DNA from: Branchiostoma floridae
Taxonomy: Eukaryota > Chordata > Leptocardii > Amphioxiformes > Branchiostomatidae
Assembly: GCF_000003815.2 (NCBI RefSeq)
Contig: NC_049981.1
Span: 10,941,478-11,005,477 of the forward strand
Length of the DNA: 64,000 nt
Direction: 5' to 3'
Notes under the pieces: model-generated
What the model saw: the letters and a program-made list of their open reading frames with translations, nothing else
Told to the model about the DNA's origin: nothing
The model's database searches: none
Shown here: positions 12,101 to 15,100 of the stretch, piece after piece
Numbering within the stretch: position 1 is the stretch's first letter
Layout of the letters: each line of letters opens with the position of its first letter
Position numbers and translations under genes: made by a program

Positions 12101-15100
12101 TGATAAGCTATCTAAGATAACTTGCAGATATGTAATACTATTATACTACAAATGATGCGAGAACCTCTGACATGATTTCTGATGACCCGTTGTCCGCGGT
12201 AAGCCTGTTTGTAGTTGTTGGCGCCGTGATGACTACGTCTGTCTCTTACATCAGCCCAGCAGTAATGTACACGTGACAGGTTTACTATGTCATGTTCTTA
12301 TCCCTCAAGCTAAATACGGCACAATTGATTGCAGTTGTGTACTGTATGCCAAAAAGCAGTTACTGAAACAACTGGATGTGATTTTGGAAATGGTCAAACC
12401 ATTCAAACGGTCTTATTAGTATTACCTGGATGTCTAACCTTCATCGATGCTGTGTGCTGTAGTTCTAAATTGGGCGCCAGAAAATCCATACAATGCGCAT
12501 CAGCACCCTGGTATTATATTCATGGTAGAAAATGCGTCTTGTCTCTCTCGTCTAGTTTTTCTTCTTTTTTGTTTTATTTTGTTATACGCAAATTAAAATG
12601 GGTTGTAAGCTTGCACAAAGTTGATTTGTATTCATACTAGGCCTGCGTATGGGCACAGGGTACTGTATTGTATTGTCATATTTACTTGTCACAATGTATG
12701 TCAAACCTGGGTCACGATAACGATTGATACGGGTGTTCCGAACTGGTCCCTATTTTACAGCATCCCATGGGCATTGTATCCCACTTGTAGGTTTCCATAG
12801 AACAAGTGGAATGCATGTCATGACTATGATCATTGCTGTTGAAAAATTTGAATATCAACTTGATATTTCCCAGCCGACTGACGGGCAATCCTTTTCGTGG
12901 TCGGGCTGGTACCTCAGGTGACATGGAATACATCGTGTTGTATTCTATGTATATGTATTACTATGTTTATTTAGCAATGGCACCCTGAAGGTAAGTGCAA
13001 GTTAGTGCTGCAAGGATAACACATCAATTGTATTCATTTTTACAGCACGCAGACCAACAATGATTTAATCATGATGTACATATAACTACCAGGAAGTTTT
13101 ATATCCATGTTTTTGTTGATACATACTTTGTTCTTGTTTCAAAATGTTTGTTTCTCATGAGCTCGACTTGACAGTTTCTTTTTTTTACCAATACTATAGT
13201 TGTGCAGATCGAGCAAAAAAGGGCTGCCATCTCACACTTAAAATTATATTAGAATGGATTTGTTTAAAGAGACACCATGTATTTCTGAAACATAAATATT
13301 GGTGCATTGAAAAACAAGATGTCACAAAGGTCTCACAATGCCCCCCCCCCCCATATTAGCCCCCCACAAAAAACGAAATGTGTAGGAAACCACATCATAA
13401 TGAATTGAGTCCCCGTCCCGACACAATTGAGAATGATAACAAAATAACATTCGTTTTGTATGATGTACTGAATTTCTTTTAAAATACAAGGGAAACTATC
13501 AAATTTGAAATTCAACAACTACTGTACTGGGAAAACCCACTCAAAGGTGCCAATGCCTGCAAAAAATGCTGTAGAGGACATTTGACAAAAATTTGGAAAA
13601 ATTAGGAAACATGTTTGAATGAAATGAAAAGAAGCCAAAATTGTGATAAAAACGGAGGAAACCCGGTGTGGTTATTGGCTAATACTGCTTTGTTTTTTTC
13701 ACTCAGGTTGCAGGCAGAAAGGGTTTCCCCCACGTTATCTATGCTCGGATTTGGAGATGGCCCGATCTGCACAAAAACGAGCTCAAACATGTCAAATATT
13801 GCCAGTATGCTTTCGACTTGAAGGCTGACAGTGTGTGTGTAAACCCCTACCATTATGAGAGAGTGGTATCACCCGGAATAGGTGAGTTACAGACAATCTA
13901 TTCTTCTCTATTCTCTTCGCTGTAGGTAGCGGGACGGAAAGTTTTCCCACACGTAATATACGCCAAGATATGGCGCTGGCCCGACCTGCACAAAAACGAG
14001 CTAAAACACGTCAAGTTCTGCAAGTTCGCTTTCGACATTAAGGCGGACTATGTGTGTGTGAATCCGTACCATTATGAGAGGGTAGTGTCGCCAGCCATCG
14101 GTAAGTAAGGACAGGACAGCATGTGTAGTGATTGTGGTGTATGTTTTTAAACTTCACTAAAGTCTTTTCAGTTTGCTTGCATCCAAGTAGACTAGCTATA
14201 TACAGTTTTACATTTTTTGGCAACATCTCCAGGGCGGAGGCCTTTTGATAACCTTTGTTTATATATTTGCTACTAGAGCAGCATTACCATATACACATAC
14301 TTCTGTTACAAATTTTCTGCAAGATTATGGACATATTGGCATTCCATTTGACTTTTGTGTTGGTTTTTGAATCTGCATTGTACAGAAAGTAGTTTTAGAA
14401 GATATACGTCTAATGTATGCAAAGCTACAGAAAGCATTGTGATTTTTATTCAGACTTTTACCAGGAAGTTGAAATAATTGTGTTGAGAATGTGTACTTTT
14501 TGTTGCAGACCTTTCTGGGCTGACATTGCAGCACACAGGTTAGTAGGTGTAATGTTACATTCTTGCTAATGTGTCAATAACCCCCCTCCCCTCTTGTCTT
14601 CTCCCCTCTCCCATCAGGAAACAAGACAATACTAATATGTGACTTGATGGTAGCAGAACACAATATTTTTGCTTATGATTTACATGGTTAAGGACCCCAA
14701 AGTTAGAAGCTTTCACACTAGAATTTACAGGATGCACAAGAAAGGTATGAAAATTGAATGTTTGACTCGGGGTACAATCTACAAAATATGTGGAGACGAT
14801 CTTAAATTTGCTGACTCCTTCTATTTCAAAACCCTATTTTATTTGAATTCCCATTGGAGATCAAACAGTAATTGGCATTAACAGTATTCAGGAACAAATT
14901 CATTTAACACAAACATCATTATCGAGAATACAGTCTCAGAAGAACTGACATATTCCATTCCATTACCATTCAGCTTGTAGTTTCTGCCTTACATATCTGT
15001 GCAGAAGAATCTTTACAGCTTTTTCAATTACTATGATCCACTACTTAATTATAGGTTTATACCCAAACTACTTTTGAAAAACTGTGTTCTGTGACCTTTA

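What the first reader, a model, noticed from the sequence alone, without database searches (positions are those of the whole stretch)
13707..14100. SMAD4 carries a tandem-duplicated MH1 exon arranged for mutually exclusive splicing
Two open exons of exactly 175 nt (13707-13881 and 13926-14100) have the same entry phase (0) and exit phase (1), good acceptors and consensus donors, and encode 50 of 58 identical residues. The intron between them is only 44 nt, below the usual minimum for animal introns, so donor and branch/acceptor should interfere sterically. Using both adds 175 nt, which breaks the frame. Either one alone joins perfectly to exon 1 and to the 30-nt exon 3. About 28 silent against 8 replacement changes indicates that both copies have been under purifying selection. 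This would make two DNA-binding versions of the only co-Smad. I do not recall this being described.
Basis: partly seen in the sequence, partly recalled or inferred. Interest (0 to 1): 0.92.

Follow-up and report, generated by a model that had tools for sequence, protein, structure and literature searches.

The report
Lancelet SMAD4 has swappable DNA-binding exons
In a lancelet, the gene for SMAD4, the shared partner in TGF-beta and BMP signalling, carries two old alternative copies of the exon that makes much of its DNA-binding domain, built so that only one of the two can usefully be used at a time, although no RNA evidence could be checked here.

Summary
The window holds an intact SMAD4 gene (592 aa) with two adjacent 175-nt versions of coding exon 2 (2a 13707-13881, 2b 13926-14100), 44 nt apart, same phases, 50/58 residues identical. 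Of five splicing outcomes computed, only '2a alone' and '2b alone' stay open; both, neither, or retention of the 44 nt give early stops. 26 codons differ silently and 8 by replacement, with silent sites saturated: an old duplication with both copies constrained. A Branchiostoma belcheri SMAD4 record carries 2b at 57/58 residues, including 7 of the 8 residues that set 2b apart; a B. lanceolatum record carries 2a at 58/58. Exon 2b puts Val at residue 89, the last residue of the DNA-binding hairpin; of 331 homologues held, 328 have Gly, 2 Asp and 1, belcheri 2b, Val. Best explanation: mutually exclusive splicing, probably by steric exclusion across 44 nt, backed by frame breakage. Transcripts, belcheri 2a, lanceolatum 2b and DNA binding were not testable here. 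A new, potentially consequential member of a known kind.

The parts
3158..3406 (+). SMAD4 coding exon 1 (residues 1-83, incl. hairpin residues R81 and Q83 and C71); donor after 3406
13707..13881 (+). Exon 2a, 175 nt, canonical MH1 half (residues 84-141; K88, G89, C115, C127, H132); same protein sequence as in the B. lanceolatum record P0018
13882..13925 (+). 44-nt gap between 2a and 2b: GTGAGT donor of 2a, pyrimidine-rich tract (85% of the 20 bases before the last three) and TAG acceptor of 2b; if retained, that TAG is an in-frame stop
13926..14100 (+). Exon 2b, 175 nt, alternative MH1 half with G89V, R97K, Y114F, Q116K, Y117F, L121I, S125Y, G140A relative to 2a
   Evidence: B. belcheri counterpart
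14101..14508 (+). Intron after 2b, 408 nt
14509..14538 (+). Coding exon 3, 30 nt, joined in frame by either copy
15868..21817 (+). Remaining coding exons: 15868-16053, 17411-17482, 18031-18216, 18529-18618, 19100-19174, 19574-19757, 20272-20440, 20977-21115, 21594-21817 (linker and MH2 region, stop)
   Evidence: the B. lanceolatum homologue P0018 has MH1 and MH2 Pfam matches

Best explanation
This is a pair of old, tandem-duplicated, mutually exclusive exons in the lancelet SMAD4 gene. Each mRNA that makes protein uses 2a or 2b, giving two co-Smads that differ at 8 residues in the second half of the MH1 DNA-binding domain (shown: either exon alone gives an intact 592-aa frame). Exclusion most likely works by steric interference: the whole gap is 44 nt, so a branch point for 2b inside the gap must lie within a few tens of bases of the 2a donor, too close for U1 and U2 snRNPs to assemble on both (inferred). 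Any escape is unproductive: joining 2a to 2b, skipping both, or retaining the gap gives a stop at codon 180, 88 or 156 with 10, 9 or 10 junctions downstream, expected to be destroyed by nonsense-mediated decay (stops shown; decay inferred). 2a is the more canonical copy and 2b the more derived one. [quoted passage not shown] How cells choose between the copies is unknown; regulated use of the competing acceptors just before 13707 and 13926 is the simplest idea.
For: Phase, length and splice sites match in both copies and the full gene model is intact with either. Only two of five computed outcomes are open. The gap is 44 nt against 312-10300 nt for the other 11 introns; Hatje et al. 2017 (PMC5740500, passages and section 22 read) use a donor-to-branch distance under 50 bp as their steric criterion and report 57 of 629 human clusters meeting it; here the whole intron is under 50. 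Silent sites saturated (pS 0.84) with pN 0.084; 0 of 5000 neutral simulations as conservative. B. belcheri record P0015 has 57/58 residues of 2b between the same exon 1 and exon 3 sequences, so 2b persisted across that species split; the two proteins differ at 30 of 552 aligned residues, counted with the window's 2a isoform and including P0015's badly modelled stretch. Both isoforms score as MH1: 142.6 and 138.2 bits, cut-off 25. Residue 89 is Gly in 328, Asp in 2 and Val in 1 (belcheri 2b) of 331 homologues held. The hairpin is residues 75-89, Lys88 contacts bases, and the authors state that there are no differences in it among metazoan Smads apart from Drosophila Smad2 (PMC5727232, passages read).
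Against: No transcript was available: nothing here shows that 2b is spliced in vivo. P0015 is probably a prediction, damaged at exon 11. No 2b with Val89 was seen among the short fragments listed (the best 120 of 591 and of 311; checked), so there is no independent second record. Whether B. belcheri also keeps 2a, and B. lanceolatum 2b, is not shown: the database shows one protein per 90% cluster, and P0018 stands for 17 member sequences that could not be read. Very short introns are spliced in some organisms (general knowledge), so steric exclusion is not certain. Seven of the 8 residues of 2b occur in at least one other homologue held, so a functional difference rests mainly on Val89.
Confidence: 0.86

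Rival explanations
1. Exclusion is not steric: 2a and 2b are spliced independently and the double-inclusion or intron-retained product serves as a poison (NMD) switch that sets the SMAD4 level, with 2b mainly a regulatory rather than a protein-coding element.
For: Double inclusion, skipping and retention all give stops far upstream of the last junction; the 44-nt gap has a good donor and a pyrimidine content before its acceptor that ties for the highest of the 12 introns.
Against: A poison exon needs no conserved protein sequence, yet 2b keeps 50 of 58 residues of 2a at saturated silent distance and 57 of 58 in B. belcheri. 44 nt is shorter than the steric limit used for human clusters.
Confidence: 0.08
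2. 2b is a decaying or unused exon copy.
For: No transcript evidence could be obtained; 2b carries Val at a position that is Gly in 328 of 331 held homologues.
Against: Open frame, intact splice sites, residue changes far below neutral expectation, and 7 of its 8 distinguishing residues kept in B. belcheri.
Confidence: 0.04
3. Assembly or haplotype artefact: two alleles or copies wrongly placed side by side.
For: The same window contains what looks like an assembly duplication elsewhere: 966 identical bases on both sides of a 118-N gap.
Against: The two exons differ at 42 of 175 nt with saturated silent sites, far beyond allelic difference; the only N run in the window is 34775-34892; and a separate B. 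belcheri record has the 2b sequence.
Confidence: 0.02

Closest known systems
Mutually exclusive tandem-duplicated exons with steric interference (human clusters in Hatje et al. 2017, PMC5740500, passages read; classic alpha-tropomyosin case recalled)
   Same: Two homologous neighbouring exons of compatible length and phase, donor and branch point too close, double inclusion breaks the frame.
   Different: The gene is SMAD4, for which no such pair turned up in the searches made; the whole gap is shorter than the branch distance limit; retention also meets an in-frame TAG.
Fgfr IIIb/IIIc exons in chordates (PMC5703972, passages read)
   Same: A single tandem exon duplication in an early chordate lineage, kept for a long time in a signalling gene.
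   Different: Extracellular receptor domain there (recalled), DNA-binding domain here; seen here only in lancelets, regulator unknown.
Smad2 exon 3 cassette (Smad2 / Smad2-delta-exon3; PMC11063908, passages read)
   Same: Alternative splicing next to the MH1 hairpin alters the DNA-binding behaviour of a Smad.
   Different: Inclusion or skipping of an exon in an R-Smad; here one homologous half-domain is swapped for another in the co-Smad.
Exon-skipping SMAD4 splice variants in several species (PMC4845351, passage read)
   Same: Alternative splicing of SMAD4 itself is known.
   Different: [quoted passage not shown] here a duplicated exon is exchanged and length is kept.
Two Xenopus laevis SMAD4 proteins, XlSMAD4-1 and XlSMAD4-2 (names seen in PMC4845351; that they are separate genes is recalled)
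   Same: Two co-Smad versions in one animal.
   Different: Separate genes instead of exons of one gene.

Membership tests
Mutually exclusive tandem-duplicated exons | Adjacent homologous exons of compatible length and same phase | tested here: met
   175 and 175 nt, phase 0 in and 1 out, 86% protein identity
Mutually exclusive tandem-duplicated exons | Either exon alone gives an open reading frame; both together do not | tested here: met
   593 codons including the stop with either; stop at codon 180 with both
Mutually exclusive tandem-duplicated exons | Splice-junction reads from each exon to both flanking exons, and none productive between them | not testable with these tools
   No lancelet RNA data reachable
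Mutually exclusive tandem-duplicated exons | Both copies under purifying selection | tested here: met
   26 silent and 8 replacement codons, pS 0.84, pN 0.084, 0 of 5000 simulations as conservative; 2b 57/58 in B. belcheri and 2a 58/58 in B. lanceolatum. No codon model was fitted to each copy separately
Steric-interference mechanism | Donor to branch point under 50 nt | tested here: met
   Whole intron 44 nt; criterion from PMC5740500. The branch point itself is not mapped and that the closeness blocks splicing in lancelets is inferred
Docking/selector RNA-structure mechanism | Strong pairing between one docking site and competing selectors near each exon | tested here: not met
   8 region pairs folded as duplexes against 60 shuffles each: z -1.65 to 0.66; the strongest, exon 2a with the 408-nt intron, was equalled by 4 of 60 shuffles. 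One species and only the ends of intron 1 tested, so a weak test
SMAD4 (co-Smad) orthologue | MH1 and MH2 domains, full-length similarity to SMAD4 | tested here: met
   Window protein differs from the B. lanceolatum SMAD4 record P0018 at 4 of 591 aligned residues; MH1 in the N-terminal 165 aa of both isoforms, MH1 plus MH2 in P0018
SMAD4 MH1 domain, 2b form | Zinc ligands C71, C115, C127, H132 and base contacts R81, Q83, K88 (contacts from PMC5727232; ligand positions recalled) | tested here: met
   All seven present in both isoforms
SMAD4 MH1 domain, 2b form | Invariant hairpin residues 75-89 | tested here: not met
   Residue 89 is Val in 2b, against the invariance stated in PMC5727232
SMAD4 MH1 domain, 2b form | Binds SBE or 5GC DNA sites | not testable with these tools
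   Needs protein; structure prediction also did not complete

The most novel reading that the evidence does not exclude
Lancelets make two co-Smads from one gene by swapping half of the MH1 domain, and the swap changes the otherwise near-invariant DNA-binding hairpin at residue 89, so that cell type or stage sets which Smad target sites are read. Splicing would then act as a genome-wide switch on TGF-beta, Nodal and BMP output at the shared node of the pathway.
Probability: 0.4. Interest if true: 0.82.

Novelty: new member of a known kind. Interest (0 to 1): 0.66.

Why it matters
SMAD4 is shared by TGF-beta, Nodal and BMP signalling, and the Smad DNA-binding hairpin has been described as unchanged across animals apart from one Drosophila protein (PMC5727232). 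A lancelet gene that keeps two versions of that domain, one with a changed hairpin residue, offers a natural experiment on how much SMAD4 itself contributes to choosing target sites, in an animal much used to infer how chordate body axes evolved. It is also a compact test case for steric exclusion of exons: 44 nt, with the other outcomes computed all giving early stops.

Tried and rejected
Docking/selector RNA pairing: eight region pairs compared with 60 dinucleotide shuffles each, no clear excess; exon 2a with the 408-nt intron was the strongest at z -1.65 (4 of 60 shuffles as strong). Further decayed copies of exon 2 in the window: tblastn and blastn gave only the two exons with strong E-values; the next best was E 0.058, 33 residues at 36%, whose surroundings showed nothing exon-like when translated; not pursued. 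Clustering of unchanged silent codons as a sign of overlapping RNA signals: longest run 5, p 0.38; few runs, p 0.059, not convincing. A finite dS: not obtainable, silent differences exceed the correction limit; bootstrap gave finite values in only 350 of 2000 resamples, so I quote proportions only. My first gene model had several exon ends off by 1-2 bases and therefore false stops in later exons; one search corrects them, and the frame statements use. Short-fragment protein searches for independent 2b evidence gave none with Val89 among the 120 rows listed from 591 and from 311 hits (checked). Paper searches found no report of this exon pair (listings and abstract starts seen, only the top 20 of 55, 20 of 216 and 12 of 302). 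Passages were read from PMC3033397, PMC5740500 (also its section 22), PMC8379844, PMC6292497, PMC3542330, PMC5727232, PMC11063908, PMC4845351 and PMC5703972; no whole paper was read. Term look-ups in PMC9741552 and PMC9013439 found none of the terms asked; I do not lean on that, because even 'intron' was not found in the former.

Full report
What is there. The window contains a complete SMAD4 gene on the + strand. Starting from the ATG at 3158 and using GT-AG boundaries throughout, twelve coding exons give an open frame of 592 residues ending in a stop at 21817. Against public proteins it differs at 4 of 591 aligned residues from the SMAD4 record of Branchiostoma lanceolatum (P0018) and at 30 of 552 from a B. 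belcheri record (P0015) (the belcheri count was made with the window's 2a isoform against a record that carries 2b and includes a badly modelled stretch). I infer a Branchiostoma lancelet other than B. belcheri; the exact species is not settled.

The pair. Coding exon 2 is present twice, 13707-13881 and 13926-14100, 175 nt each, with 133 of 175 nt and 50 of 58 residues identical. The gap is 44 nt, GTGAGT...GCTGTAG, against 312 to 10300 nt for the other 11 introns of the gene. From memory, vertebrate SMAD4 has the same 175-nt and 30-nt exons at this place; this was not tested. Detectable similarity is confined to the exons, as expected for an old duplication.

Only two products work. I computed five outcomes. 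2a alone and 2b alone give the full frame. 2a+2b stops at codon 180, skipping both at codon 88, and retention of the 44 nt at codon 156. The last case is worth noting: 175+44+175 keeps the frame, but the acceptor's own TAG falls in frame as a stop. In the failing cases 10, 9 and 10 exon junctions lie downstream of the stop, the usual setting for nonsense-mediated decay (general knowledge).

Age and constraint. 26 codons differ silently and 8 by replacement; silent differences are 30.5 at 36.5 sites, past the point where a distance can be computed, against 11.5 at 137.5 replacement sites. In 5000 neutral simulations with the same number of nucleotide changes the fewest residue changes was 19, and 4256 acquired a stop. 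At seven of the eight differing positions 2a has the residue most common among 240 homologues; at position 117 the commoner residue is 2b's Phe (152 against 88 with Tyr). So 2b is the more derived copy.

Conservation outside the window. A search with the 2b isoform (2346 hits, best 120 listed) returned B. belcheri P0015 with 57 of 58 residues of 2b between the same exon 1 and exon 3 sequences, and B. lanceolatum P0018 with 58 of 58 residues of 2a. P0015 shares V89, K97, K116, F117, I121, Y125 and A140 with the window's 2b and differs only at 114, so 2b predates the split of these species. Caveats: P0015 lacks the exon 11 sequence and has an unrelated stretch there, so it is probably a gene prediction; and the database shows one protein per 90% cluster, so the 17 member sequences behind P0018, which may include 2b forms, could not be read. 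Two searches for shorter fragments (best 120 of 591 and of 311 listed) gave no further 2b.

What the swap changes. Both isoforms score as MH1 (142.6 and 138.2 bits), and both keep the zinc ligands and the base-contacting R81, Q83 and K88 (ligand positions recalled, contacts from PMC5727232). The exon junction after Q83 splits the DNA-binding hairpin, residues 75-89: R81 and Q83 are constitutive, K88 and residue 89 come from the alternative exon. Among the 331 distinct homologues held from three searches (a set picked by likeness to 2b, not a random sample, and including non-Smad MH1 proteins), residue 89 is Gly in 328, Asp in 2 and Val in 1, the B. belcheri 2b. Tyr125 is rare but not unique (3 of 331; one is belcheri, another the unnamed fragment P0310). 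The other six 2b residues occur in further homologues. PMC5727232 states that the hairpin shows no differences among metazoan Smads apart from Drosophila Smad2; 2b is an exception.

Mechanism. Steric exclusion is the leading idea. Hatje et al. 2017 treat a donor-to-branch distance under 50 bp as potential steric interference and report 57 of 629 human clusters; here the entire gap is shorter than that. Frame breakage is the back-up. A docking/selector RNA mechanism found no clear support in a weak one-species test. The regulator that chooses between copies is unknown. Because both exons share the upstream donor and the downstream acceptor, choice must be made at the acceptors just before 13707 and 13926 or at the donors just after 13881 and 14100.

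Comparison and novelty. It works like known mutually exclusive exon pairs; the read-based defining test could not be run. Its closest functional relative in the Smad family is the Smad2 exon 3 cassette, which also alters DNA binding through splicing near the hairpin (PMC11063908), but that is insertion or skipping, not a swap. SMAD4 splice variants are known, mostly lacking exons (PMC4845351). The chordate Fgfr IIIb/IIIc pair is a comparable early-chordate exon duplication in a signalling gene (PMC5703972). No report of a SMAD4 exon pair came up in nine library searches, which cover only open-licence papers and show only the top rows of long lists; the paper that cloned AmphiSmad4 was not available.

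Verdict.

Noticed in passing
window 33809-34774 and 34893-35858: 966 bases are repeated with 100% identity on either side of a 118-N gap (34775-34892), including a 162-base-period tandem array: most likely an uncollapsed contig overlap, an assembly artefact.
   Followed up: yes
window 21582-21594: The last SMAD4 exon has a second in-frame acceptor 12 nt upstream (exon start 21582); the B. lanceolatum and B. belcheri records carry the four extra residues it would add.
   Followed up: partly
P0003-P0014 (the named ones are cnidarians): Twelve proteins of 419-979 aa with MH1 but no MH2 in their precomputed domains, most with PHD-type domains. Two checked with Pfam (Nematostella P0010 and unnamed P0003) have two MH1 stretches and PHD fingers: an MH1 architecture outside the Smads.
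   Followed up: partly
window 41352-42968, +: Long open frame for a TRIM-type protein with RING, B-box and NHL repeats.
   Followed up: no
window 46868-47382: 27-copy 19-base tandem repeat that reads as long open frames on both strands; probably not coding.
   Followed up: no
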